64,000 nt of DNA from Pseudomonas sp. SST3 (lineage in GTDB: Bacteria > Pseudomonadota > Gammaproteobacteria > Pseudomonadales > Pseudomonadaceae): the NCBI RefSeq assembly GCF_003325755.1, contig NZ_QORI02000004.1, forward strand, positions 186,001 through 250,000. The letters are read 5' to 3'. Position numbers and translations under genes: made by a program. Shown here one piece after another: positions 45,743 through 62,080 of this stretch. The notes beneath the pieces are model-generated. The model saw only the letters and a program-made list of their open reading frames with translations. It did not search any database and was not told the DNA's origin. The stretch's first letter is position 1, and each line of letters begins with the position of its first letter.

Positions 45743-46840
45743 TCAGATGCGCACGCTGGCGAAGGTCGACTCACCCTGGGCCCGTTGCAACGCGGCCATG
45801 ACGGCTGGGTGTTTGCGGACTTCATCAGGGCGAGGAATCAGCGCGACCACCTGCCCCGAGTGCTGACCCGAGCGCTCGTCACGCGGTGGAATGCCGAAGA
45901 ACTCGCGGTAGCACTTGGAGAAATGCGGGGTCGAGACGAAGCCGCACACCGAGGCCACTTCGATGATCGACATGGGCGTCTGCTTGAGCAGCTGGCGGGC
46001 ACGTATCAGCCGCAGCTTGAGGTAGTAACGCGACGGCGAGCAGTGCAGGTACTTTTGAAACAGCCGCTCGAGCTGGCGTCTCGACACGTTGACGTAACAC
46101 GCCAGTTCGTCCAGGTCGATCAGCTCTTCGAGGTTGGCTTCCATCAACGCCACGATTTCCAGCAGCTTCGGCTGGTTGGTGCCCAGCATGTGCTTGAGCG
46201 GCACCCGCTGGTGGTCCTGTTCGTTGCGAATGCGCTCGCACATGAACATGTCCGAGATCGCCGCGGCCAGTTCACGTCCATGCTGCGCGCCGATCATATG
46301 CAGCATCATATCCATCGGGGCGGTGCCGCCGGAGGCGGTATAGCGATTGCGATCGATGGAGAACAGCCGGGGCGTCACCGTCGCACGAGGAAAGGCTTCC
46401 TGCATCGCCGCGAGACATTCCCAATGCACGCTGCAGTCGTAGCCATCGAGCAACCCGGCCTTGGCCAGCGCCCAGCTACCGGTACACACCGCCCCCATCT
46501 GACGACCATGGCGGGCTTGCGCCTGCAGCCAGTGAAGATGCTCGCGGGTCGCGCTGTGTAGGATATCCACCCCGCCGCAGACGATCACTGAATCAAGGCT
46601 GGGCGCCGTAGCGAAGCTGGCATCCGGCGTGATCTGCAGCCCGTCACTGGCCATTACCGGTTGCCCAGCATGGGTCAACGTGAACCAGCGATACAGCTCT
46701 TTGCCGGAAAGCTGGTTAGCCATGCGCAGCGGCTCGACGGCCGAAGCCAGGGAGATCAGGGTGAAGTTATCCAACAGCAAAAAGCCGATGGTCTGCGGGA
46801 GCCGATTCGGGGGCTGCGACCCGGGGTTGATCTGTGACAA
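45743..46840 (-). CDS. gbdR: AraC-family regulator GbdR
   Basis: Activator of glycine betaine and dimethylglycine breakdown genes in Pseudomonas. The 365-residue protein has an N-terminal glutamine-amidotransferase-like domain (about 15-195, with VCGGVDILHSA and GAVCTGSWALAKAGLLDG) and a C-terminal AraC DNA-binding domain (about 225-325, LACYVNVSRRQLERLFQKYL and ASVCGFVSTPHFSKCYREFFG). The start is TTG at 46840 with GAGG 8 bases upstream; no ATG fits. The upstream region carries a BetI-like operator at 46950. Its neighbour sdaB has the same order in P. aeruginosa (PA5379/PA5380). Confidence 0.95.
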   Translation of the reverse strand: MSQINPGSQPPNRLPQTIGFLLLDNFTLISLASAVEPLRMANQLSGKELYRWFTLTHAGQPVMASDGLQITPDASFATAPSLDSVIVCGGVDILHSATREHLHWLQAQARHGRQMGAVCTGSWALAKAGLLDGYDCSVHWECLAAMQEAFPRATVTPRLFSIDRNRYTASGGTAPMDMMLHMIGAQHGRELAAAISDMFMCERIRNEQDHQRVPLKHMLGTNQPKLLEIVALMEANLEELIDLDELACYVNVSRRQLERLFQKYLHCSPSRYYLKLRLIRARQLLKQTPMSIIEVASVCGFVSTPHFSKCYREFFGIPPRDERSGQHSGQVVALIPRPDEVRKHPAVMAALQRAQGESTFASVRI

Positions 46841-47242
46841 TGACGGATCCTCACGCTTAGCAATATTGATGAGCCTTGGATGGCCCTTTTCTTATTTTCC
46901 GGCGTGTAACGGCGCCGGGTTTTGCAGATATCAAGGCAAACCGCATGCCTATATTGATTGGATGTTCAATAAAAGCCGGCAGCCCGCCAAAACGGCCCTG
47001 CGGCAAGCGCTGGGGCCCGCAGAAAAAACTTGCTGTATCGGGCCGGCACGCCTGCTTTTGGCAGGGGCTGAGCACTTTGGTAGCAATGCCCGGCGTGTCG
47101 AGCGCGAAACTCGGGTAGAAAAAAACCGGCGGTAACAAAAAGCGGTAACAGGCAAGGGCCGGAACCGGCCGGCGCTGCGCCCGCTCACCCGAAGAACGCA
47201 CCACAAAGATCCCGTGCATCGGTACCAACGCACGGATCTGGG
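46841..47242. other. Region between gbdR and sdaB
   Basis: 402 bp that hold the gbdR promoter region and the sdaB 3' flank (both genes run on the minus strand). It includes the BetI-like site at 46950 and a GGCCGG/CCGGCC inverted repeat near 47157. No coding frame is convincing. Confidence 0.5.
46950..46973. promoter_or_regulatory. BetI-operator-like palindrome upstream of gbdR
   Basis: Half sites TATATTGATTG and GTTCAATAAA match the operator before betI (55300-55323) at 20 of 24 positions, with the same spacing. It lies 110 bp upstream of the gbdR start. BetI binding here is inferred from this match. Confidence 0.6.
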
Positions 47243-48619
47243 TCAGCACTCGATCGCGTTGACTGCAAGGCCGCCACGGGACGTTTCCTTGTACTTGTCA
47301 TGCATGTCCGCGCCGGTATCACGCATGGTGCGGATGACTCGATCCAGTGAGATGAAGTGCTCGCCGTCCCCACGCAATGCCATCTGTGCCGCATTGATTG
47401 CCTTCATCGCAGCGATGGCGTTGCGCTCTATGCAGGGCACCTGCACCAGGCCGCCGACCGGGTCGCAGGTCAGCCCGAGGTTATGCTCCAAACCAATCTC
47501 GGCGGCATTCTCGAGTTGCTCGGGCGTCGCGCCCAGAAGCTCTGCCAAACCAGCTGCCGCCATGGCGCACGCGGAACCGACCTCGCCCTGACAGCCCACC
47601 TCAGCGCCGGAAATCGACGCGTTCTTCTTGCAGAGAATGCCAACCGCCGCCGCCGCGAGAAGGTAATTGACCACATCGTCATCGCAGGCTTGCGGGTGGA
47701 ATTTCATGTAGTAATGCAAGACCGCCGGAATGATGCCCGCCGCGCCGTTGGTGGGTGCGGTGACCATCCTCCCGCCCGCCGCGTTCTCCTCGTTCACCGC
47801 CAGCGCAAACAGATTCACCCATTCCATTGCGCTCATGGTCGAACCGATGACATTCGGCTTGCCCAGCTCCAGCAGATTGCGATGCAACCTGGCGGCACGT
47901 CGACGGACATTCAGCCCGCCGGGCAACACGCCTTCATGGCGCAGACCATTGGTTACGCACTGTTGCATCGCTTGCCACAGGCGCAGCAGGCCGCTGCGGA
48001 CCTCCGCCTCACTACGCCAGGCCGTTTCATTAATCATCATCAGTTCGCTGACACGCAGCTCATTGCGCTTGCACAGCTGCAGGAGCTCGACCGCACTGGA
48101 AAAGTCATAGGGCAACGCGGTGTGATCCTGATCCAGCTGACCGGCTGCCGCCTGCTCGGCGTTGACCACGAAGCCGCCGCCGACGGAGTAATAGGTGTCC
48201 TGAAAAAGCTCGCCGGAATGCCCTTGCGCGATGAAGGTCACGGCGTTGGGGTGGTAGGGCAGGTTCTCCTCAAGCAGGAGCAGATCTTTCGCCCAGTCGA
48301 ATGCGATCGGCCAGTGACCATCGAGCCGCAGCTGCCCACTGGAGCGAAGTGCCGCGATGCGCGGAGCGATCTGCTCCGGATCGATGAGGTCCGGCCGTTC
48401 GCCCATCAGCCCCATCAGTACAGCGTTATCGGTACCGTGCCCGACCCCGGTCGCCGACAGCGACCCATACAGACGCACCTCTACGCGCCACACACGTTCC
48501 AGCAGCTTGCGTTCGCGCAGCGCACCGACAAACAGCGCGCCGGCGAGCATGGGTCCAACGGTATGCGAGCTGGAGGGCCCGATGCCGACTTTGAAAAGAT
48601 CGAATACGCTGATCGCCAC
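47243..48619 (-). CDS. sdaB: L-serine dehydratase (Fe-S)
   Basis: Deaminates L-serine to pyruvate, the last step of the betaine route in this window. The 458-residue protein has the SSSHTVGPM substrate motif near residue 15, the SDH beta domain, and the cysteines of the oxygen-labile [4Fe-4S] cluster in the GAEVGCQGEVGSACAMAAAG and LTCDPVGGLVQVPCIERN regions. GTG 48619 has GGAG upstream; the frame back to 48700 lacks family residues. It is downstream of gbdR in the known P. aeruginosa order and is a likely GbdR target. Confidence 0.95.
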   Translation of the reverse strand: MAISVFDLFKVGIGPSSSHTVGPMLAGALFVGALRERKLLERVWRVEVRLYGSLSATGVGHGTDNAVLMGLMGERPDLIDPEQIAPRIAALRSSGQLRLDGHWPIAFDWAKDLLLLEENLPYHPNAVTFIAQGHSGELFQDTYYSVGGGFVVNAEQAAAGQLDQDHTALPYDFSSAVELLQLCKRNELRVSELMMINETAWRSEAEVRSGLLRLWQAMQQCVTNGLRHEGVLPGGLNVRRRAARLHRNLLELGKPNVIGSTMSAMEWVNLFALAVNEENAAGGRMVTAPTNGAAGIIPAVLHYYMKFHPQACDDDVVNYLLAAAAVGILCKKNASISGAEVGCQGEVGSACAMAAAGLAELLGATPEQLENAAEIGLEHNLGLTCDPVGGLVQVPCIERNAIAAMKAINAAQMALRGDGEHFISLDRVIRTMRDTGADMHDKYKETSRGGLAVNAIEC

Positions 48620-49608
48620 GCTGAACGCTCCACAGGATGCCCCAAGACAGGGAGCATGATCATCGTTTTGCCTGCGAAAAGAAGTCTGGCACCGACGCAC
48701 TCATGTCCAAATCCGTCAGCCCAGCCGCCGTGGACTTCAGGCAGCGACGACGGGCTGCCCCCGGCGCTGTTACGAGCGGAAGAACATCGTGCACAGCCAC
48801 TCAATTTCAGTGGTGCCGCTCCGGACAAATGACGTATCGGATTCGGGCAGGAATTCGCGCATCACACCTGTCGCTTTTGCCCCGCAGTTGCGCGCTTACC
48901 TTGAATGTCTTCAGGCGTTGTCGCCGGGCCAACGAAGCTCCCGAAACGGAACAAAAAACTTCTCAATGACATTCAAACTCTGGTTAATCAGCCCATCCTC
49001 ATGATTTTTTTTCACGTTGCCGCTGATGGCGCCAGGCCACGGCACAGCGATCTATCCGCGCATTTGCTGGAGTACAACTATGCCCAACGAAGAAACCCAG
49101 CGGTGCCATGATGAATTTTTTTCTGTTATGGTTTTTTTAGGCATACATGTCGCCGCTCAGTACGTGAGCGTCGCAACCCGACAATCGCAAGCGCCAAAGG
49201 GGAATATCGTTAAGTCATGTTTATCCGAAGTCGCCAGGTCAGCACAGGTCCTGGCAACGCCGAATGCCTTGCGCAGATGAACCCCCAGCCGTCCAGCAGA
49301 ACGGCTGTACATAACAATAATAGGTAGCCGGTTCAGCCCCTATGGAGCGGCGACCACGATTGGCTTGCTAGTACTGCCAGAGGACCAAAGCAGCACAGCG
49401 GTGAATGACAGAACGTAGGAATCGGCCGATACGCGAGATGAACATTCAGCTCGCCTGCAGAGCCGCGGCCCGTCGAGTCCCGCCGCACCGCGTCCGCCCG
49501 AAAATATGTCAACCCATAAGCCATAGCAGTTGGCACTAGCCGGCAGCGCTGCAAGGCGCTTGCGGCCTCGTTTAGCTGATCTGGATGTCTACTGAGGGGA
49601 ACCATCCC
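48620..49608. other. 989-bp region between sdaB and the ABC transporter
   Basis: No gene is convincing in 48620-49608. The open frames are short and lack pseudomonad codon bias. Two A+T-rich runs, near 49000 and 49115-49140 (ATGAATTTTTTTCTGTTATG), stand out from GC-rich surroundings. A GCCGTC/ACGGCTG hairpin lies at 49286-49307. GGACAAATGACGTATCGG at 48823 resembles the CGACAAAATGGCTATACGG upstream of gbcA. Divergent promoters for sdaB and the transporter are expected here. Confidence 0.45.
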
Positions 49609-50805
49609 ATGCGGTCTGGAAAAATCGTCGTCGAGAACCTTTACAAGGTCTTCGGCCCGCAGGAACAAGAAGCCATCGCCCTGCTCAAGCAAGGCTGGAG
49701 CAAGGACAAGATTCTCGCCGAGCGCGGTGCGGTCATCGGTGTGAGTGATGTTTCGTTCAGTGTCGAGGAAGGTGAAATCTTCGTCCTGATGGGCCTGTCC
49801 GGCTCCGGCAAATCCACGCTGATACGCCTGATCAACCGCCTGATCGAGCCCAGCGCCGGAGACGTCTTCATCGATGGGCAGAACGTTGCGAAACTGCCCC
49901 ACTCACAACTCATCGACTTGCGTCGTCGCGACATGAGCATGGTTTTCCAGTCCTTCGCACTGATGCCGTCGCGCTCGGTGCTGGACAACGCCGCCTTCGG
50001 CCTGGAGGTCGCCGGCGTCGGTCGTCGAGAACGAGAAGAGCGCGCCATGACGGTGCTCACGCAGGTCGGTCTCGACACCTTCGCGCAGAAGTATCCGCAC
50101 GAGCTGTCCGGCGGCATGCAGCAGCGCGTCGGCCTTGCCCGTGCGCTGGCGGTGAACCCTTCGATGATCATCATGGACGAAGCCTTTTCCGCCCTCGACC
50201 CGCTCAAGCGCCGGGAGATGCAGGACGTCTTGCTGGAGCTGCAAAAGACCCATCGACGCACCATCATCTTCGTCTCCCATGACATCGAGGAAGCCATGCG
50301 CATCGGCAACCGCATCGGCATCATGGAAGGCGGCAAGCTGGTTCAGGTCGGTACGCCGCAGGAGCTGATCGACAACCCCGCCAGCAGCTACGTGCGCAAT
50401 TTCTTCGAAACCGTCAACACGACCCGTTACCTCACCGCCGGCCAACTCAAGGCCGACAGCGTTCCGCTCTATGTGCACAACGGCAAGGCGCCGGACGCCC
50501 TGCAGGTCTGTCAGGAGTTGCAAGCGATGGACAAGCACTACGCCTTCGTCGTTGACGAGGACAAGAAATTCCGCGGTTCGATCAGCCTGGAACGCATCGC
50601 TCTGCTGGTCGAGAACGGCCAGACCTGCGCCCTCGAGGCGGACGTGTTGAAGCAGATTGATCCCCTGACCGAAGACCAGCCACTCGACCAGGTGATCGAA
50701 CGCCTGGTGGATAACGAAGGGCCTATGCCCGTGGTGGACAGCCAAGGGTTCTACGCGGGCGCCATCAGCAAAGGCCGCCTTCTGACTCGCCTGCAGGAGG
50801 AATGA
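49609..50805 (+). CDS. cbcV: Choline/betaine ABC transporter ATPase (CbcV-like)
   Basis: ATP-binding subunit of a ProV/OpuAA-type quaternary amine importer, 398 residues. It has Walker A GLSGSGKST, the signature ELSGGMQQRVGLARALA and Walker B MIIMDEAFSALDP. The C-terminal CBS domains (about 275-395, HYAFVVDEDKKFRGSISLE and GPMPVVDSQGF) are known osmosensor modules in OpuA. ATG 49609 has GAGGGG upstream; ATG 49585 is an alternative. It is the first gene of the cbcVW transporter and overlaps or nearly overlaps the permease gene. Confidence 0.93.
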   Translation: MRSGKIVVENLYKVFGPQEQEAIALLKQGWSKDKILAERGAVIGVSDVSFSVEEGEIFVLMGLSGSGKSTLIRLINRLIEPSAGDVFIDGQNVAKLPHSQLIDLRRRDMSMVFQSFALMPSRSVLDNAAFGLEVAGVGRREREERAMTVLTQVGLDTFAQKYPHELSGGMQQRVGLARALAVNPSMIIMDEAFSALDPLKRREMQDVLLELQKTHRRTIIFVSHDIEEAMRIGNRIGIMEGGKLVQVGTPQELIDNPASSYVRNFFETVNTTRYLTAGQLKADSVPLYVHNGKAPDALQVCQELQAMDKHYAFVVDEDKKFRGSISLERIALLVENGQTCALEADVLKQIDPLTEDQPLDQVIERLVDNEGPMPVVDSQGFYAGAISKGRLLTRLQEE

Positions 50806-50807
50806 TC

Positions 50808-51695
50808 ATGAGCAAAGAACTCGATCTGGGGAGCTGGGTCAACGACGTCGTCCAGCACCTGCTGGAGAACTACAGCGGCGCCTTCGATAGCCTGGGCAGT
50901 GTGGTCAGCGGATTTTCCGAAGGTATCGAAGCATTGCTGATGCTGCCGCCGGCCTGGCTGCTCATCGCCATTTTCGTCGGCCTTGGGCTGTGGCGCATCG
51001 GCGCCCGGTTCGCCGTCTTTACCGCCGTATCCTTCATTCTCATCGTGCTCACCGGCTTCTGGGAGCAGACCGTGGTGACCCTCGGCCTGACCTTTTCCGC
51101 CACGCTGATCAGCCTGGTCCTGGGCGTTCCGCTGGGTATCTGGTCGGCTCGCAGCGAACGCGTGGCCATGATCACCCGCCCGATCCTGGACTTCATGCAG
51201 ACCATGCCGGCATTCGTCTACCTGATTCCGGCGGCGATGCTGTTCGGCCTCGGTCGCGTACCCGGCATCATCGCCACGGTGATTTTCGCCATGCCGCCAG
51301 CGGTGCGCCTGACCAACCTGGGCATCCGCCAGGTCAACAAGGAGATCGTCGAGGCCGGACAATCCTTCGGCTGCAACGCCCGGCAGCTGCTGTTCAAGGT
51401 GCAGTTGCCCAACGCAATGCCGTCGATCATGGCTGGGGTCAACCAGACCATCATGATGGCGCTGTCGATGGTGATCATCGCCTCGATGGTCGGCGCTGGC
51501 GGTCTGGGCAACGACGTGCTGGCCAGTATCCAGCGACTGGACATCGGCCTCGGTTTCGAAAGCGGCATGGCCGTGGTGCTGCTGGCAATCATCCTCGACC
51601 GCATCACCGAAAGCTTCGGTACTGCCAAGCGGGCCACGCAGAAAGCTGCCTGGTACACCTGGGTGAGCACCAAGCTCAGGCTGCAGCGCCAGTAG
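50808..51695 (+). CDS. cbcW: Choline/betaine ABC transporter permease (CbcW-like)
   Basis: A 295-residue inner-membrane protein with about six helices. The permease signature VEAGQSFGCNARQLLFKVQLPNAMPSI includes the EAA loop that docks the ATPase. AGGAGG lies 8 bases before the ATG at 50808; the overlapping ATG at 50802 is too close to that site. It probably forms a homodimer with the CbcV ATPase. Four bases past the cbcV stop keep the pair translationally coupled. Confidence 0.93.
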   Translation: MSKELDLGSWVNDVVQHLLENYSGAFDSLGSVVSGFSEGIEALLMLPPAWLLIAIFVGLGLWRIGARFAVFTAVSFILIVLTGFWEQTVVTLGLTFSATLISLVLGVPLGIWSARSERVAMITRPILDFMQTMPAFVYLIPAAMLFGLGRVPGIIATVIFAMPPAVRLTNLGIRQVNKEIVEAGQSFGCNARQLLFKVQLPNAMPSIMAGVNQTIMMALSMVIIASMVGAGGLGNDVLASIQRLDIGLGFESGMAVVLLAIILDRITESFGTAKRATQKAAWYTWVSTKLRLQRQ

Positions 51696-51727
51696 ACCAT
51701 CACGAACCGTAGACACAGGGATTTACG

Positions 51728-52672
51728 ATGAATACGTTCAAGAAGATCACGGGTATCGGACTGTTCTCCTGCGCATTGATGCAGAACGCATGGGCGCAGG
51801 AGCCAGCCAGCTGCGAGAAGGTGCGCTTCGCTGAGATCGGCTGGGCGGACATCGCCGCCACCACAGGCGTGGCGATGGTGCTGTCCGAAGGCCTGGGCTA
51901 CGACCCAAGCAAGGTGATGGCCTCGGTACCGATCGCCTTCACCGGCGTGAAAAACAAGCAGATCGATGCCTTTCTCGGATACTGGTCGCCCTCCATGGAC
52001 GCGGTCATCGAGCCCTTTACCAAGGATGGCGGCGTCAAGGTGCTCGAGTCGCCGAATCTTGAGGGCGCCAAATACACCCTGGCGGTGCCGACCTACGCGG
52101 CCGAAGCAGGGCTGAAGAGCTTCCAGGACATCGCCAAGTTCGAAGACGAGCTGGGCGGCAAAATCTACGCGATCGAGCCGGGTAACGACGGCAACCTGCT
52201 GATCGAAAAGATGATCAAGAGCGACCAGTTCGGCCTCGGTGATTTCCGCATGGTCGAATCCAGCGAAGCCGGCATGCTGGTTCAGGTGCAGCGCGCGATC
52301 AGGAAGAAAGAGCCAGTGGTGTTCCTCGGCTGGGCTCCACACCCGATGAACGCCCAGTACGACCTGACCTATCTGGCTGGTGGCGATGAGGTGTTCGGCC
52401 CCGACTACGGTGCCGCCAAGGTATTCACCGTGGTGCCGCCGGATTATCTGGAACGCTGCGCGAATGTCGGCAAATTGCTGCAGAACCTGCAGTTCACCGT
52501 CCCCATCGAGAGCGAGCTGATGAGCATGGCGCTCGAACGCGACGATCCGCAGACCGTGGCGAAAAGCTGGATCAAGGCCAACCCGGCCATCCTCGAGCAA
52601 TGGCTGGCGGGCGTGACGACCTTCGATGGCCAGGATGGCGTTGCCGCCGTGAAGAAATTCGTCGGTCTCTGA
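51728..52672 (+). CDS. cbcX: Choline-type substrate-binding protein (CbcX/ChoX-like)
   Basis: A 314-residue periplasmic binding protein with a signal peptide ending NAWAQ (about 23). The mature part fits the OpuAC/ChoX fold (AEIGWADIAATTGVAMVLSEGLGYDP, DAFLGYWSPSMD, KEPVVFLGWAPHPMN), with aromatic residues that form the cage for a quaternary ammonium group. It is 32 bp downstream of cbcW and delivers substrate to it. Similarity to the binding protein at 59554 is high, so both probably bind choline. The symbol follows position. Confidence 0.85.
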   Translation: MNTFKKITGIGLFSCALMQNAWAQEPASCEKVRFAEIGWADIAATTGVAMVLSEGLGYDPSKVMASVPIAFTGVKNKQIDAFLGYWSPSMDAVIEPFTKDGGVKVLESPNLEGAKYTLAVPTYAAEAGLKSFQDIAKFEDELGGKIYAIEPGNDGNLLIEKMIKSDQFGLGDFRMVESSEAGMLVQVQRAIRKKEPVVFLGWAPHPMNAQYDLTYLAGGDEVFGPDYGAAKVFTVVPPDYLERCANVGKLLQNLQFTVPIESELMSMALERDDPQTVAKSWIKANPAILEQWLAGVTTFDGQDGVAAVKKFVGL

Positions 52673-52934: not shown

Positions 52935-53789
52935 ATGAGTCTATTCAAGCACCTTCTTTGTGGTCTCGGCGCCGCCAGCATGGCGCTCGGCATGGCCACC
53001 AGCATGGCGGCGGACAAGCCCGAGCTGAAAATCGGCTACGTAAACGGCTGGGACGATAGCGTCGCCGCCACCCACGTGGCAGGCGAGATTCTCGAAAGCA
53101 ACCTGGGCTATACCGTCAAGCTGCAACCGGTCGAGCCGGCCATCATGTGGCAGGGCGTCGCACGCGGTGATCTCGACGCCACGCTCTCCGCCTGGCTGCC
53201 CGCCACCCATGGTGAATACTTCGAAAAGCTGAAGGATAAAGTCGTGGTGCTCGGCACCAACTACGAAGGCGCCAAGATCGGTCTGATCGTACCGGACTAC
53301 ATGGATGCCAAAAGCATCGCCGATCTCGACCAGCACAGCGAAGCACTGGGTGGCAAGATCACCGGCATTGATGCCGGAGCCGGCGTGATGCGCCGCACCG
53401 AAGATGCCATCGAGCAATACGATCTGGACATCCGGCTGATGGCCAGCTCGGGCCCGGCAATGACCACCGCGCTGACCCGTGCGGAAAAGGCGAAGGAGCC
53501 CATCGTCGTCACCGGCTGGATCCCGCACTGGATGTTCGCCAAATGGAAGCTGCGCTTCCTGGATGATCCGAAGAAGGTCTTCGGCGATGACGAACACGTC
53601 GACACGGTCGCCAACCCGGCCCTGGCCAGCAAGGCTCCCGAGGCCGAGGCCTTCCTGAAGAAATTCAGCTGGAACGCCGAAGAAGTCGGTGAAGTGATGC
53701 TGGCTATCCGCGACGGCGCCAAGCCGGACGCTGCCGCTCGCGAATGGGTCAAAAACAACCCGGAACGCGTCGCCGGCTGGCTCGAATAA
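52935..53789 (+). CDS. OpuAC-type glycine betaine binding protein
   Basis: A second periplasmic binding protein, 284 residues, with a signal peptide ending SMAAD (about 26). It has KIGYVNGWDDSVAATHVAGEIL, the binding-site region GDLDATLSAWLPATHG and VVTGWIPHWMFAKWK, closer to OpuAC/ProX (glycine betaine) than to ChoX. TGGAG lies before the ATG. It has no transporter of its own and starts 262 bp after the choline-type protein, so it may share the CbcVW core. The substrate is inferred from sequence class. Confidence 0.85.
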   Translation: MSLFKHLLCGLGAASMALGMATSMAADKPELKIGYVNGWDDSVAATHVAGEILESNLGYTVKLQPVEPAIMWQGVARGDLDATLSAWLPATHGEYFEKLKDKVVVLGTNYEGAKIGLIVPDYMDAKSIADLDQHSEALGGKITGIDAGAGVMRRTEDAIEQYDLDIRLMASSGPAMTTALTRAEKAKEPIVVTGWIPHWMFAKWKLRFLDDPKKVFGDDEHVDTVANPALASKAPEAEAFLKKFSWNAEEVGEVMLAIRDGAKPDAAAREWVKNNPERVAGWLE

Positions 53790-53871
53790 CCATCGATCCC
53801 CCTACACCCTATCTCTCCCACCCCGACCGCGCCCTTTGGCGGGCGCCGCTCGAAGCCATGGAGTCGTGCGC

Positions 53872-55172
53872 ATGCGTGTAATCAAGTGGAGCACCCTGGC
53901 GCTGGCCGTCACCGCCGCCGTCAACCAGCTGGCCGTGGCCAGCGAACAGTCGGAAGCCGCCGACTTCGTCGACGACAGCAACCTGACGCTGCTGAACAAG
54001 AACTACTACTTCGCCCGCGACAACCATGCGCCTGGCGCCGATCCGAGCCGCATCGAAGAGTGGGCTCACGGCATGCTGCTCACCTATGAGTCCGGATTCA
54101 CCCAGGGCCCCGTCGGCTTCGGCGTCGATCTCCATGCCGGTGGTGCCATCAAGCTAGACAGCGGTCGCGGCACCAGCGGCACCGGCCTGTTACCGGTGGA
54201 CAGTGACGGCCGCGCCGCCGACGAGCTCGGGTTCGCCGGAGGCGCCGTCAAGCTGCGCATCTCCAATACCACGCTCAAGTACGGTGACCTGACCCCTACC
54301 GCCCCGGTCTTCTCGCCGGGCACCGGGCGCATTTTTGCCAGCACCGCCAACGGCTTCCAGCTGATCTCTGGCGAAATCGAGCGGCTGACGGTCGATGCCG
54401 GCTACTTCACCTCGATTCGTGATCGCAACCGCTCGGTCAATCGAGACGGCGAAATCACCCTGGTCTATGCCGGCGCCATCGACTCGGAAACCGTCGGCTA
54501 CCTGGGCGGCACCTACCAGCTCACCGACAGCCTCAGCGCCACACTCTATGGCTCCAAATACGAGGATGTCTGGACCCAGTACTACGGCAACCTGAACTAC
54601 GCATTGCCACTCGCCGAAAACCAGGCGTTGACCTTCGACTTCAACGTCTACGACACCCGGGACGAGGGTGCAGCGCTGGCCGGCGACATCAACACCACGG
54701 CCTGGTCGCTGGCTGCTGGCTATTCGATCGGCGCCCATACCTTCACCCTCGCCCACCAGCAGGTGAACGGCAACTCGCCCATGGACTACATCAGCATAGA
54801 CGGCACCAACGCCGGCGACTCCATCTACCTGGCCAACTCCTCGCAATGGTCCGATTTCAACGCGCCCGGCGAGCAGTCCATGCAAGCCCGCTACGACCTC
54901 GACATGGCGGCCTACGGCGTGCCTGGCCTGAGTCTGATGGCCAGATAGATATCGACGGCGCGAGCGTCGACCCCAACGGAGCCTACGCCTACTACGCCGG
55001 AGCCGCCGGCAAGGGCAAAGAGTGGGAGCGCGACCTTGAAGCCAAGTACGTCGTTCAGGATGGCGGCCTCAAGGACCTGTCCCTGCGCGTGCGCTACGCC
55101 ACGGCACGCGGATTCGCTGGTGATATCGACGAGCTGCGCGTGATCACCGAGTATCCGCTGGATATTCTCTGA
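53872..55172 (+). pseudogene. OprD-family outer-membrane porin gene with a frameshift
   Basis: Frames from 53872 and to 55172 together encode an OprD-like porin of about 430 residues: signal peptide ending VAVAS (about 23), the NYYFARDNHAPGADPSRIEEWAHGML start of the barrel, and the C-terminal VRYATARG...RVITEYPLDIL. In frame 1 translation stops at 54946 (ARLSLMAR then TAG); the rest continues in another frame from DIDGASVDPNG, which fits a lost base near 54945. ATG 53872 has GGAG upstream. It is next to betaine uptake genes and may have let quaternary amines through the outer membrane. Real pseudogene or sequence error is not decided. Confidence 0.75.
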
Positions 55173-55299: not shown

Positions 55300-55323
55300 T
55301 TTATTGATTGATCGTTCAATAAA
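55300..55323. promoter_or_regulatory. BetI operator upstream of betI
   Basis: A near-perfect 24-bp palindrome with arms TTTATTGA and TCAATAAA around TTGATCG. It lies 49 bp before the betI ATG, the site expected for auto-repression of the betIBA operon by choline-responsive BetI. Confidence 0.75.
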
Positions 55324-55371: not shown

Positions 55372-55965
55372 ATGCCCAAGGTTGGAATGCAGCCCATCCG
55401 GCGCAAGCAACTGATCCACGCCACGCTCGAAGCGGTGGATCAGGTCGGCATGAGCGACGCCAGTATCTCGATGATCGCGCGTCTGGCAGGTGTCTCGAAC
55501 GGCATCATCGCGCACTACTTTCAGGACAAGAACGGCCTGCTCGAAGCCACCATGCGACACCTGATGAAAGCGCTCAATCAGGCCGTTCGTATACGCCGCG
55601 AGGCGCTTACCGACGACAGTCCGCGCGCGCACCTGAAGGCGATCATCGAGGGCAACTTCGACGATAGCCAGGTGAACGGACCCGCGATGAAAACCTGGCT
55701 GGCGTTCTGGGCGTTCAGCATGCATCAACCCTCCCTGCACCGGTTGCAGCGGATCAACGACTGCCGCCTGTATTCCAATCTCTGCTGCGAGTTCCGCCGC
55801 GTTCTGCCGAAGGAGCAGGCACGCTCGGCTGCGCGAGGCATGGCGGCATTGATCGACGGCTTGTGGTTGCGCGGCGCGCTGGCCAGCGACGACTTCGATA
55901 TCGAACAGGCATTGCAACTGGCCTATGACTACCTGGATCAGCTACTGACCAAGCAGGTGCACTGA
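55372..55965 (+). CDS. betI: Choline-responsive TetR-family repressor BetI
   Basis: Repressor of the choline oxidation genes, released by choline. The 197-residue protein starts [22 protein letters not shown], the BetI N-terminus, with the TetR helix-turn-helix [27 protein letters not shown] (about 30-57). The C-terminal ligand domain is intact. GGAG lies before the ATG. It is first in betI-betB-betA, the usual Pseudomonas order, with the palindrome at 55300 as operator. Confidence 0.96.
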
Positions 55966-55998
55966 TCCCCTTCTTCACTACGCACCGCGAGGATGACC

Positions 55999-57471
55999 AT
56001 GCCCCGTTTCGAACAACAGAAACTCTACATCGATGGCCGCTATACCGAGGCCACTAGCGGCGGCACCTTCGAGACCGTCAATCCAGCGACCGGCGAAGTG
56101 CTTGCCGAGCTCCAGCGCGCGTCGCGGGACGATGTCGATAAAGCTGTCGCCAGCGCCACCGCGGGACAGAAGGTCTGGGCCGCGATGACCGCCATGCAGC
56201 GCTCGCGCATCCTGCGCCGAGCGGTCGACATCCTGCGCGAACGCAACGATGAACTGGCCGAACTGGAAACCCTCGATACCGGCAAGCCGCTGGCGGAAAC
56301 CCGCGCAGTGGATATCGTGACCGGGGCCGATGTGCTCGAATATTACGCCGGGCTGATCCCGGCCATCGAAGGCGAGCAGATCCCGTTACGCGATACCAGC
56401 TTCGTCTATACCCGCCGCGAGCCGCTGGGTGTGGTGGCCGGGATCGGTGCCTGGAATTACCCGATCCAGATTGCCCTATGGAAGTCCGCACCGGCATTGG
56501 CGGCCGGCAACGCGATGATCTTCAAGCCCAGTGAGATGACGTCCCTGAGCACCCTGAAACTGGCCGAGATTTACACCGAGGCTGGCGTGCCGGATGGCGT
56601 ATTCAACGTGCTCACCGGCAGCGGTCGGGAAGTCGGCACCTGGCTTACCGAGCATCCAGGCATCGAGAAGATTTCCTTCACCGGCGGCACCAGCACCGGC
56701 AAGAAGGTCATGGCCAGCGCGTCCAGCTCCTCGCTCAAGGATGTGACCATGGAGCTGGGTGGCAAGTCGCCGCTGATCATTTTCGAGGACGCCAATCTCA
56801 ACCGTGCCGCGGACATTGCGGTCATGGCCAACTTCTTCAGCTCTGGCCAGGTCTGCACCAATGGCACCCGCGTATTCATCCATCGCTCTTTGCAGGCGCG
56901 GTTCGAAGCCAAGGTGCTCGAGCGGGTAAAACGCATCCGCCTGGGCGACCCGCTGAACGCGGAAACCAATTTCGGCCCCTTGGTGGGCTACGCACACATG
57001 GACAGCGTGCTCGATTACCTCGAGTCGGGCCGGGCGGAAGGGGCACGTCTGCTTTGTGGCGGCGCAAGGGTGACCGACGGTGAATACGCCAAAGGTGCCT
57101 ATGTCGCGCCAACCGTGTTCAGCGATTGCCGCGATGACATGCGCATCGTGCGCGAAGAGATCTTCGGGCCCGTCATGAGCATTCTGATCTTCGATGACGA
57201 AGCGGAAGTGATCCGCCGCGCGAACGACACCGAGTACGGCCTCGCTGCCGGCGTGGTGACCAACGACCTGGCCCGCGCCCACCGTGTCATCCATCAGCTC
57301 GAAGCGGGCATTTGCTGGATCAATACCTGGGGCGAGTCGCCCGCTGAGATGCCGGTCGGCGGCTACAAGCAATCCGGTGTCGGCCGTGAGAACGGCCTGA
57401 CGACCCTGGCGCATTACACCCGCACAAAATCGATCCAGGTCGAACTGGGCGATTTCGCCTCGGTGTTTTAG
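55999..57471 (+). CDS. betB: Betaine aldehyde dehydrogenase
   Basis: NAD(P)-dependent enzyme that turns betaine aldehyde into glycine betaine, 490 residues, the normal length. The catalytic glutamate is in [12 protein letters not shown] (near 251) and the catalytic cysteine in [12 protein letters not shown] (near 285). The Rossmann motif [11 protein letters not shown] is present. ATG 55999 has GAGG upstream and the family start [16 protein letters not shown] 55993 is too close to that site. It follows betI after 33 bp. Confidence 0.97.
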
Positions 57472-57561
57472 AAAACAGCCACGAGCTGCAAGGCAGCCGG
57501 CGCTGCTCACGCCTTTTCTCGACGGCGTGACGGCTGCCGCCTTCGTCCAGAGGATCTGACT

Positions 57562-59286
57562 ATGGAATTCGACTACATCATCATCGGTGCTGGCTCGGCC
57601 GGTAACGTTCTGGCAACCCGCCTGACCGAGGACGCCGATGTCAGCGTGCTGCTGCTCGAAGCCGGAGGTCCCGACTACCGGATGGATTTCCGTACCCAGA
57701 TGCCCGCCGCGCTGGCCTTTCCGCTGCAGGGGCGGCGCTATAACTGGGCCTACGAGACCGATCCCGAGCCGCACATGAACAATCGCCGCATGGAGTGCGG
57801 TCGGGGCAAGGGCCTGGGCGGCTCGTCGCTGATCAACGGCATGTGCTACATCCGAGGCAACGCCATGGACTACGATGGCTGGGCCAAGGCGCCCGGTCTG
57901 GAAGACTGGACCTATCTCGACTGCCTGCCCTATTTCCGTAAAGCCGAGACACGTGACATCGGCCCCAACGACTACCATGGCGGCGACGGCCCGGTGAGCG
58001 TGACCACGCCCAAGCCCGGCAACAATCCCTTGTTCCGCGCCATGATCGAGGCCGGCGTACAGGCCGGCTATCCGGAAACCGACGACCTCAACGGTTATCG
58101 CCAGGAAGGCTTCGGCCCGATGGATCGCACGGTCACGCCCAAGGGGCGTCGCGCCAGCACCGCGCGTGGGTATCTGGACATGGCCCGTGGCCGACCGAAC
58201 CTGACCATCGTGACCCATGCGCTGACCGATCGCATCCTGTTCAGCGGCAAGCGGGCCATCGGTGCGGCTTACCTGCATGGCAGCAGCGACACGCCAGTGA
58301 TCGTCCATGCCCGGCGTGAAGTGCTGCTGTGCAGTGGCGCCATCGCCTCGCCACAGATCCTGCAGCGCTCTGGCGTCGGCCCGGGCGCGCTGCTGCGCGA
58401 ACTGGGCATCCCGATCGTCCACGATCTTCCAGGCGTCGGGGCCAACCTGCAGGATCACCTGGAGATGTACCTGCAGTACGCCTGCAAACAACCGGTTTCG
58501 CTCTACCCTGCGCTGCAGTTGCATAACCAGCCTCTGATCGGCGCCGAGTGGCTGTTCCTGGGCAAGGGCATCGGCGCCAGCAACCAGTTCGAGGCGGGCG
58601 GGTTCATTCGCTCGCGCGCCGAGTTCGAGTGGCCGAACATCCAGTACCACTTCCTGCCGGTGGCGATCAATTACAACGGCAGCAACGCGGTAAAGGAGCA
58701 CGGCTTCCAGGCCCATGTCGGTTCCATGCGCTCGCCCAGCCGCGGGCGTGTACATGCCCGCTCGCGGGACCCGCGCCAGCACCCGAGCATCCTGTTCAAC
58801 TACATGTCGTGCGAGCAGGATTGGCAGGAGTTCCGCGACGGCATCCGGATCACCCGGGAGATCATGGCGCAATCGGCACTGGATCCCTATCGCGGCCGAG
58901 AACTGAGTCCCGGCGCCAACATCGACAGCGATGCCGAGCTGGATGAGTTCGTCCGCCAGCACGCCGAAACCGCCTTCCATCCGTCCTGCTCCTGCAAGAT
59001 GGGCGAAGACGAGATGGCCGTGGTCGACGGCCAGGGCCGGGTGCACGGCCTCGACGGGCTACGGGTGATCGATGCCTCCATCATGCCGCTGATTACTACC
59101 GGCAACCTCAACGCGCCGACCATCATGATGGCCGAGAAACTCGCCGACCGGGTTCGCGGGCGCACGCCGTTGCCGCGCAGCACCGCGCCGTATTACGTCG
59201 CGGGATCCGACCCGGTGCGCAACGCGGCGCAGACACAGCCGGCAGCCGCGCAGAAGGCGCAGAAGGCGCAAAGCGTTCAAGTCTAG
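57562..59286 (+). CDS. betA: Choline dehydrogenase
   Basis: FAD-dependent GMC oxidoreductase that oxidises choline to betaine aldehyde and can continue to betaine; it is membrane-associated. The 574 residues show the ADP-binding motif [18 protein letters not shown], the GMC signatures [20 protein letters not shown] and [15 protein letters not shown], and the active-site [14 protein letters not shown] lies before the ATG. It is the last gene of betIBA, 90 bp after betB, and is followed by two copies of the TAGGGTGGA repeat. Confidence 0.97.
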
Positions 59287-59553: not shown

Positions 59554-60489
59554 TCAGAGCGAGGCCTTCACCGCCGCTAGCCCATCTTCACCCTCGCGGG
59601 TTGTGACGCCTTGCAACCAGCCTTCGAGCACCTCGGGATGGGCCTGTATCCAAGCCTTCACCGCCGCCTCGTTGCTGGCGTTTCTGGCCAGCACCTCGTC
59701 CATGATGGCGTTCTCCATGTCCTGGGTGAATTTCAGATTGGAGAGCAGCTTGCCGACATTCGGGCACTGCGCAGCATAGCCCTTGCGCACCAGCGTATTG
59801 ACCGTCCCGCTTTCGCCGAAATAAGCCTCGCCGCCCTTGAGATACTTGATGTCGTGTTGCACGTTCATCGGGTGCGGCGTCCAGCCGAGAAAGACCACGC
59901 CCTTGTCCCGCTTAACTGCCCTGCCGACCTGCACCAGCATTGCCTGCTCGCTGGACTCGATCAACTTCCAGTCGCCAAGACCGAATTCATCGTTAGCGAT
60001 CATTTTCTGGATCGTCAGGTTCGCTGGCGCACCGGCGGCAATCCCGTAAATCGTCTTGTCGAACAGATCGGCGTGCTTGTCGAGATCCTCGAAACGCTTC
60101 ACGCCGGCATTCCAGACCGAAGTCGGCACCGCCAGGGTGTACTCGGTGCCGGTCAGGTTCACGCTGTGCTCGTCGATCTCACCGGTGGCCACGAACTTGT
60201 CGTAGTTGTCCTGTTGCGCCGGCATCCAGTTGCCGAGAAAGACATCGACCTGATCCTTGGTCAGCCCGGCGAAGATGATCGGCACGCCCAGCGTCATGAC
60301 CTGCGGCTTGTAGCCGAGGCCTTCGAGCAGCAGGCTGGCGATGCCATTGGTTACGGCAATGTCGCTCCAGCCCGGATCACCCAGGCGCACCGTGGCGCAC
60401 TGTTTGTCTTCGATCACGCCCTGCGCCTGGAGACTCGTGGCGGCCAGCAACACGCTACCGGCCACAACCGCATTTATTGTTTTTCTCAT
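59554..60489 (-). CDS. Choline-binding protein (ChoX-like) beside betC
   Basis: A 311-residue periplasmic protein, signal peptide ending SLQAQG (about 22), with DPGWSDIAVTNGIASLLLEGLGYKP, DVFLGNWMPAQQ and GVVFLGWTPHPMN of the ChoX class. It is 70 bp downstream of betC in the same direction, so the two probably share a transcript. No ATPase or permease gene is near, so it is likely to use the CbcVW core or a distant one. ATG 60489 has AAGGC upstream; the frame to 60531 is an extension. Confidence 0.85.
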   Translation of the reverse strand: MRKTINAVVAGSVLLAATSLQAQGVIEDKQCATVRLGDPGWSDIAVTNGIASLLLEGLGYKPQVMTLGVPIIFAGLTKDQVDVFLGNWMPAQQDNYDKFVATGEIDEHSVNLTGTEYTLAVPTSVWNAGVKRFEDLDKHADLFDKTIYGIAAGAPANLTIQKMIANDEFGLGDWKLIESSEQAMLVQVGRAVKRDKGVVFLGWTPHPMNVQHDIKYLKGGEAYFGESGTVNTLVRKGYAAQCPNVGKLLSNLKFTQDMENAIMDEVLARNASNEAAVKAWIQAHPEVLEGWLQGVTTREGEDGLAAVKASL

Positions 60490-60559
60490 GTCCGTCTGCC
60501 TTCTCTCTATTCGAAAGGATTCCGTAAACACGGCCTGGTTGCTGCCGTGCCGTGATGAT

Positions 60560-62080
60560 TCAGGGTCTAGGGTAGCGGGCCTGACGCTCGAGATCGTCCA
60601 GGTCGATGTGGTTGCGCATGTACTGCTGGCTGGCGTCCACCCAGGGCTGATGATCCCAGCTGGTCAGCTTGCCCAGGCTCAGCGCTTCGCTGACCAGACG
60701 CCGCCGGCGCTGGCTGGCAAGCACCTGGTCATGGATCGCCCGCATGTCCCAACGTTGCCGCGCTTCGGTCAGAAAGGCTTCGGCGAGCGCCTGGTGATCG
60801 GCCGAACCGACAAGGTTCTCGCGCTCCAGCGGGTCGTTGACCAAATCGAACAGCAGGCACGGATCCTGTTCCGAATAGATGAATTTGTAGGCCCCGCGGC
60901 GGATCATCATCAGAGGGCTGGTGGTGCCTTCGGCCATGTACTCGCCGATCACTTCGTCATGGCCTTCGTGGCCGGTCAGGTGCGGCAGCAGCGAGCGGCC
61001 ATCGAGCGGCAGGTTGGCCTCCAGCGTGCCGCCGGCCAGCTCGACCAGGGTCGGCAGCAGGTCGGCGGTCGATACCGAGGCGCTGACGCGGGCCGGATCG
61101 ATGCCGGGTGCGTGGATGATCAGCGGCACACGAGCCGCCATTTCGAACCAATGCATCTTGTACCAGAGCCCGCGCTCGCCCAGCTGGTCGCCGTGGTCGC
61201 CGGAAAACACCACGATGGTGTCTTCGGCCAGACCGCACGCTTCAAGCGTCTTCAACAGCTTGCCGACGTTGTCATCGATATAGCTGCACGCGCCGAAGTA
61301 GGCGCGCCTGGCATCCTTGATTTTCTGTTCGGGTAGTGACTTGCCCCACAAGTCGATGACCTTTAGCAGGCGCTGCGAGTGGGGGTCCTGTTCATCCTGG
61401 GCGATATCCTGGCGCGGCAGCGGGATGTCTTCGTCCCGGTAACGGTTCCAGTACTCCTCGGGGATGGTGTAGGGATCGTGAGGGTGGGTCATCGACACCG
61501 TCAGGCAGAACGGCTTGCCATCTTCCGCGCGAACGAAGTCGTAGAGGTACTGTTGCGCCTTGAATACCACCTCCTCATCGAAATCCATCTGGTTGGTGCG
61601 CACGCTGGGCCCTGCCTGCAGCACCGAAGACATGTTGTGGTACCAGCTCAGGCGTACGTCCGGTTCGTCCCAGTTCACCGCCCAGCCGTAATCGGCCGGG
61701 TAGATATCACTGGTCAGCCGCTCCTCGTAGCCATGCAGCTGGTCCGGTCCGCAGAAGTGCATCTTGCCGGACAGTGCAGTGTGGTAACCGAGCCGGCGCA
61801 GGTAGTGCGCGTAGGTCGGCACATCGGCAGGAAAGTCGGCGGCATTGTCGTAGGCGCCGATCCTGCTGGGCAGCTGGCCACTGACGAGAGTGAAGCGCGA
61901 CGGCGCGCAGAGCGGGCTATTGCAGTATGCCGAGTCGAACACCACGCCTTCGGCCGCCAGACGCGAAAGGTTCGGCAATTTGATTGGCGATGCCGGGTCA
62001 TGCATCGGCAGGATTGGCGCGGCCATCTGATCGGCCATGATGAACAGTATGTTTGGGCGCTTCATATCCGAGTGGTCCAT
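60560..62080 (-). CDS. betC: Choline-sulfatase
   Basis: Hydrolyses choline-O-sulfate to choline and sulfate. The 506-residue protein is a type I sulfatase. The signature LCAPSRFTLVSG (about 57-68) carries the cysteine that becomes formylglycine, and FIMADQM and HGDQLGERGLWYK give metal and sulfate ligands. The start is ATG 62080 or ATG 62065 (MKRPNILFIMADQM, closer to relatives). No formylglycine-generating enzyme gene is in the window; it must be elsewhere. It is divergent from the LysR gene at 62177. Confidence 0.93.
   Translation of the reverse strand: MDHSDMKRPNILFIMADQMAAPILPMHDPASPIKLPNLSRLAAEGVVFDSAYCNSPLCAPSRFTLVSGQLPSRIGAYDNAADFPADVPTYAHYLRRLGYHTALSGKMHFCGPDQLHGYEERLTSDIYPADYGWAVNWDEPDVRLSWYHNMSSVLQAGPSVRTNQMDFDEEVVFKAQQYLYDFVRAEDGKPFCLTVSMTHPHDPYTIPEEYWNRYRDEDIPLPRQDIAQDEQDPHSQRLLKVIDLWGKSLPEQKIKDARRAYFGACSYIDDNVGKLLKTLEACGLAEDTIVVFSGDHGDQLGERGLWYKMHWFEMAARVPLIIHAPGIDPARVSASVSTADLLPTLVELAGGTLEANLPLDGRSLLPHLTGHEGHDEVIGEYMAEGTTSPLMMIRRGAYKFIYSEQDPCLLFDLVNDPLERENLVGSADHQALAEAFLTEARQRWDMRAIHDQVLASQRRRRLVSEALSLGKLTSWDHQPWVDASQQYMRNHIDLDDLERQARYPRP

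What the first reader, a model, noticed from the sequence alone, without database searches (positions are those of the whole stretch)
46950..46973. A BetI-like operator upstream of gbdR links choline sensing to betaine breakdown
The palindrome before betI (55300-55323) and the site at 46950-46973 agree at 20 of 24 positions, with both half sites TTGATTG and GTTCAATAAA at equal spacing. In the literature I know, BetI controls choline uptake and oxidation, and GbdR senses the product, glycine betaine. A BetI site 110 bp before gbdR would let choline directly prime the downstream activator. No other good copy is seen in the window.
Basis: partly seen in the sequence, partly recalled or inferred. 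Interest (0 to 1): 0.7.

Follow-up and report, generated by a model that had tools for sequence, protein, structure and literature searches.

The report
BetI choline switch on gbdR promoter
The short DNA palindrome in front of gbdR looks like a real docking site for the choline-sensing repressor BetI, placed right against the gbdR promoter; this control is already published for Pseudomonas aeruginosa, so it is an ordinary conserved switch, although one related group of bacteria seems to have lost it.

Summary
The two sites agree at 20 of 24 positions, nothing else in the window matches, and 100 shuffles give none. The gbdR site matches the palindrome between betI and betT of E. coli at 19 of 20 positions. 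A matrix trained only on sites before betI finds a site before gbdR in 78 of 80 sequences. Its core ends 2 or 3 bases before the -24 GG of a sigma-54 promoter in 78 of 80.

BetI repression of gbdR without choline is reported for P. aeruginosa (Sanchez 2017, title seen only; restated in a review, passages).

BetI binding was not tested here.

The parts
46952..46971 (-). BetI operator core at gbdR (TATTGA-N8-TCAATA)
   Evidence: Exact half-sites; 19 of 20 identical to the E. coli bet palindrome; matrix score 28.2
46936..46949 (-). sigma-54 promoter of gbdR: -24 GG at 46948-46949, -12 GC at 46936-46937
   Evidence: GGCATGCGGTTTGC on the minus strand; the strict motif is present in 80 of 80 gbdR upstreams
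47069..47085 (-). conserved block, probably a site for an enhancer-binding protein (inference)
   Evidence: 1.58 bits per column in 51 non-redundant upstreams, against 0.38 in the spacer 46990-47060
47132..47150 (-). two tandem TGTTAC units that resemble CbrB subsites but do not fit the full consensus
   Evidence: GTAACA at 47132 and 47145 on the plus strand; consensus in PMC8871633, passages
45743..46840 (-). gbdR
   Evidence: NF052371, 648 bits
55302..55321 (+). BetI operator core before betI
55372..55965 (+). betI, the repressor
   Evidence: TIGR03384, 260.7 bits; first 60 residues 45 of 60 identical to E. coli BetI and 55 of 60 to that of P. aeruginosa PA7
55993..57471 (+). betB, betaine-aldehyde dehydrogenase
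   Evidence: NCBIfam TIGR01804
57562..59286 (+). betA, choline dehydrogenase
   Evidence: NCBIfam TIGR01810

Best explanation
46952-46971 is a BetI operator that lies directly against the sigma-54 promoter of gbdR. Without choline, BetI sits there and keeps sigma-54 polymerase from using the promoter. Choline releases BetI, so betIBA and gbdR are freed together; activators that respond to carbon or nitrogen shortage (CbrB, NtrC), bound upstream, then fire the gbdR promoter, and GbdR waits for the betaine made from choline. Shown here: the operator sequence, its match to the betI and E. coli sites, the promoter motif and their near-fixed spacing across relatives. Taken from literature on P. aeruginosa (passages): repression by BetI without choline and control by RpoN, CbrB and NtrC. 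Inferred: that this holds in the window's organism, and that repression works by blocking the polymerase.
For: Only two matches in the window, none in shuffles. 19 of 20 identical to the E. coli bet palindrome. Matrix trained on betI sites only: 78 of 80 gbdR upstreams reach 10, a score that 2.3% of block-shuffled upstreams reach. Strict sigma-54 motif in 80 of 80 upstreams, with the operator core ending 2 (59) or 3 (19) bases before the -24 GG. In 298 family genomes the exact composite occurs in 125, all of which have GbdR and BetI over the cut-offs. Published repression of P. aeruginosa gbdR by BetI (PMC10418997, passages).
Against: No binding data here. The gbdR core is a weaker palindrome (12 of 20 symmetric) than the betI core. 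17 of 47 betI upstreams had no site within 3 mismatches of the seed, so the matrix rests on 30 upstreams, 10 different sequences. Some gbdR sites that pass are weak (L022, L028, L037; shuffle fractions 0.01-0.02). The operator is missing at gbdR in ten genomes that have BetI. The CbrB-like units do not fit the full consensus.
Confidence: 0.85

Rival explanations
1. BetI binds the site but does not act by blocking the polymerase: it hinders DNA looping between the upstream activators and the promoter, or only fine-tunes gbdR.
For: The operator lies between the conserved upstream block at 47069-47085 and the promoter, so a looping effect is possible.
Against: The operator core ends 2 or 3 bases before the -24 GG in 78 of 80 upstreams, closer and more constant than a looping effect would need.
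Confidence: 0.25
2. The site is bound by another regulator than BetI, for instance another TetR-type protein.
For: A 2026 paper reports that PvrA, a TetR-type regulator, binds the gbdR promoter of P. aeruginosa (PMC13415123, passages).
Against: The PvrA motif given there (CGGTCA / TGACCG) is different from this site. The site matches the sites before betI and in the E. coli bet region.
Confidence: 0.05
3. The resemblance is chance, or the AT-rich palindrome is just part of the sigma-54 promoter.
For: It lies beside the promoter in 78 of 80 upstreams.
Against: No matches in 100 shuffles. Ten genomes keep the strict promoter without the palindrome, so the promoter motif does not need it.
Confidence: 0.02

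Closest known systems
BetI control of gbdR in Pseudomonas aeruginosa (Sanchez et al. 2017, Microbiology 163:1343; title seen in reference lists, paper not held)
   Same: Same gene, repressor, sigma-54 promoter and starvation activators, as restated in PMC10418997 (passages). P. aeruginosa PA7 (L050) has the operator 2 bases before the -24 GG.
   Different: The window is from a Stutzerimonas-like organism. I could not see where that paper places the BetI site or how it explains repression.
BetI operator between betI and betT of E. coli
   Same: 19 of 20 bases identical to the gbdR site; choline-responsive BetI.
   Different: E. coli BetI is listed as a single-target regulator of betIBA/betT (PMC8249747, passages); none of 14 control genomes, E. 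coli among them, has a GbdR over the cut-off.
BetI site before betT1 in Pseudomonas synxantha 2-79
   Same: Reported as similar to sites in P. aeruginosa, E. coli and Ensifer meliloti (PMC12442406, passages).
   Different: A transporter promoter, not gbdR.

Membership tests
BetI operator | Sequence like sites before betI and in the E. coli bet region | tested here: met
   Matrix score 28.2, E. coli site 29.4; 19 of 20 identical to E. coli
BetI operator | Conserved at the same gene in relatives | tested here: met
   78 of 80 upstreams; 152 of 167 readable gbdR genomes of the sample (125 exact composites; 27 by matrix)
BetI operator | A BetI with a conserved DNA-binding region in the same organism | tested here: met
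   BetI at 55372-55965; first 60 residues 45 of 60 identical to E. coli
BetI operator | Bound by BetI and released by choline | not testable with these tools
   Needs gel shift or footprint
sigma-54 promoter | GG-N10-GC with the GGCAYR-N4-TTGC core | tested here: met
   46936-46949; 80 of 80 upstreams
CbrB binding site | TGTTAC-N12-14-GTAACA-N15-19-GTAACA (PMC8871633, passages) | tested here: inconclusive
   Two tandem units at 47132 and 47145, wrong spacing for the full consensus

The most novel reading that the evidence does not exclude
The BetI-gbdR link is an old wire of the family that has been cut in one lineage: ten genomes, three of which I placed in a GbdR tree beside P. luteola and P. 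duriflava, keep the sigma-54 promoter and a perfect operator at betI but have no operator at gbdR. There the activator of betaine breakdown should be primed by starvation alone, without choline. Choline-gating would then be an evolvable setting that decides whether betaine is kept for osmoprotection or eaten.
Probability: 0.6. Interest if true: 0.4.

Novelty: already known. Interest (0 to 1): 0.22.

Why it matters
It supports that one repressor couples choline oxidation to the activator of betaine breakdown in most gbdR-bearing genomes sampled from the family, with an operator placed against a sigma-54 promoter. The genomes that lost only the gbdR operator give a natural comparison for asking what choline-gating of gbdR is good for.

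Tried and rejected
Extra BetI-like sites (up to 3 mismatches) in five relatives' genomes: 19 hits, the betI and gbdR sites included, against 3 for the reversed control pattern. I looked at three that lie away from bet and gbdR. In PA7 one overlaps the 3' end of a TetR-type ORF and in S. zhaodongensis one has no obvious target; I treat both as chance. In S. azotifigens one with a single mismatch lies inside a predicted ORF upstream of what looks (by recall) like a glucose-6-phosphate dehydrogenase gene; I leave it open.

A test of 'gbdR without betI means no operator' could not be made: the only such genome of the 298 (G249) has gbdR at a contig edge. A first sigma-54 scan used a pattern one base short and was replaced. 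Plasmid search with the intergenic region: no match. PDB search with BetI gave only distant TetR relatives. The label 'no operator' on the GbdR tree is not significantly clustered (6 changes, shuffled mean 7.2, 83 of 500 shuffles as low), so the absences as a whole need not be one event.

Dropped before counts: L003 (upstream missing); L003 and L013 (79 aligned, 51 kept under 85% identity); 17 of 47 betI upstreams with more than 3 mismatches, and the window's own, in training the matrix. The shuffles move two-base blocks, not a strict dinucleotide shuffle.

Full report
What is there. The window carries a choline-betaine cluster of a Stutzerimonas-like organism (GbdR 93% identical to that of S. 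zhaodongensis): gbdR at 45743-46840 (-), a serine dehydratase at 47243-48700 (-), choline/betaine ABC transporter genes at 49585-52672 (+), and betI, betB and betA at 55372-59286 (+). They are the only matches in the window to TATTGATTGNNNGTTCAATAAAA with up to 3 mismatches, and 100 shuffles gave none. The gbdR site differs from the palindrome between betI and betT of E. coli K-12 at 1 of 20 bases.

Is it a BetI operator? I looked for sites before betI, using the window's betI site as seed: 30 of 47 upstreams, the window included, have one within 3 mismatches; the other 17 do not. The 10 different sequences from these relatives gave a matrix that has seen no gbdR site. It was run over the 400 bases (fewer at contig ends) before gbdR in 79 relatives and the window (L003 dropped, no upstream DNA). 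78 of 80 score 10 or more, a score that 2.3% of block-shuffled upstreams reach; the two failures are P. luteola (L046) and P. ovata (L070). In P. ovata no good site is seen before betI either (best 8 mismatches), whereas P. luteola has a good one there (1 mismatch). The E. coli site scores 29.4 on this matrix and the window's gbdR site 28.2.

A strict sigma-54 motif (GGCAYR-N4-TTGC) occurs once in each of 80 gbdR upstreams; in all, it occurs only 88 times in 3.18 million strand-bases of these sequences. Offsets from -3 to 14 were allowed, and the 20-base operator core fits best ending 2 bases (59) or 3 bases (19) before the -24 GG in 78 of 80; the other two are L029 (a palindrome in a shifted register, 6) and L070 (4, poor fit). 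In the window: operator 46952-46971, -24 GG at 46948-46949, -12 GC at 46936-46937, gbdR start at 46840. In an alignment of 51 non-redundant upstreams, high conservation falls on the promoter (1.64 bits per column), a block at 47069-47085 (1.58), the operator (1.31) and the GCGTGAGG stretch just before the start codon, which I take for the ribosome-binding region, against 0.38 in the spacer 46990-47060. The upstream block is probably the site of an enhancer-binding protein; that is inference. Two tandem TGTTAC units at 47132-47150 resemble CbrB subsites but do not fit the published consensus.

Across the family. In 298 genomes drawn from the family of the nearest relative's genome, the exact composite (TTGA-N8-TCAA, 4-5 bases, sigma-54 motif) occurs in 125, 127 hits in all, with one hit for the reversed control pattern. 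BetI is over its cut-off in 175 and GbdR in 168. All 125 composite genomes have both (lists typed). I compared coordinates for 22 of the 125: in all 22 the composite lies 94 to 356 bases before the GbdR match. Two genomes (G029, G148) have a second hit that I did not follow. Of the 43 gbdR genomes without an exact composite, one is unreadable (contig edge, G249). Of 29 that I fetched as L095-L123, all keep the strict promoter with 2 to 4 half-site mismatches of 12 beside it, and 27 score 10 or more by the matrix somewhere in the fetched stretch; the other two score 7.5 and 9.0. Ten have the promoter but no operator (below). The last three (G006, G007, G200) show no strict promoter motif, one of them a relaxed match. 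In G006 betI and gbdR are divergent neighbours, and a good site (score 27.0) lies between them, nearer betI. So 152 of 167 readable gbdR genomes carry the operator by these measures.

A lineage that cut the wire. Ten genomes (G010, G027, G041, G052, G064, G072, G080, G088, G110, G124) keep the strict sigma-54 promoter at gbdR (10 of 10) and a perfect TATTGATTGAACGTTCAATA before betI (10 of 10, score 38.4), but the best score anywhere in the scanned gbdR upstream is -2.8 to 5.7. BetI and its operator persist while the operator at gbdR is gone. A GbdR tree holds three of the ten (L131-L133): they stand together (100/100) beside P. luteola and P. duriflava (95/86). P. duriflava still has the site (score 15.9) and P. 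luteola a degraded one (3.2). That all ten are one clade is inferred from their near-identical upstream sequences. Absences over the whole tree are not significantly clustered (83 of 500 shuffles as low), so other absences are separate events or noise.

What is known. A review says that gbdR of P. [quoted passage not shown] 2017, whose title names sigma-54, NtrC/CbrB, IHF and BetI. I saw that title in reference lists; the paper itself is not held, so I do not know where it places the BetI site. A 2011 review already noted a high sigma-54 score before gbdR (PMC3170909, passages). A 2026 paper reports PvrA binding at the gbdR promoter through another motif (PMC13415123, passages). E. coli BetI is listed as a single-target regulator (PMC8249747, passages). 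A BetI site before betT1 is noted in P. synxantha (PMC12442406, passages). Full-text searches for BetI with GbdR (11 papers listed), BetI with 'gbdR promoter' (1 paper) and BetI site, box or operator (3 papers) listed nothing by title or abstract on loss of this operator. I opened passages of only some of these, and most subscription papers are outside the library.

Verdict. The finding is real and, on this evidence, correctly read, but the regulatory link is already published. What is added here is the near-fixed placement against the sigma-54 promoter over the family and its loss in one group. BetI binding, choline release and the blocking mechanism in the window's organism remain untested.

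Noticed in passing
window 53836-55172 (+): An OprD-family porin gene before betI is split over two reading frames: 53836-54948 covers profile positions 1-323 and 54846-55172 covers 327-394 of 394. It may be broken or a sequencing error; described only.
   Followed up: partly
window 60560-62080 (-): A choline sulfatase gene (PF00884, PF12411) lies in the same cluster, with a choline-binding protein at 59554-60531 (-) beside it.
   Followed up: no
window 52935-53789 (+): An additional choline-binding-like protein after the transporter genes, well below the family cut-off (163.6 bits, cut-off 379).
   Followed up: no
L018 1779 and 2555: In P. toyotomiensis a site with 5 mismatches to the seed lies just before betI and a closer one lies beyond the gene; L017, L019, L020, L023, L026, L027, L030 and L039 show a like pair. 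betI and another choline gene may have separate operators.
   Followed up: no
L013 9610; genome G177: Operator and sigma-54 promoter lie about 369 bases before gbdR in P. segetis and 356 before the GbdR match in G177, against about 100 in most; an insertion seems likely.
   Followed up: no
genomes G029 and G148: A second hit of the operator plus sigma-54 pattern away from gbdR, alike in both genomes; target gene not looked up.
   Followed up: no
L001-L080: The closest match to the window's CbcV is about 81-95% identical in some loci but only about 37-48% in the P. aeruginosa and P. fluorescens-like loci, so two types of transporter ATPase seem to occupy this cluster.
   Followed up: no
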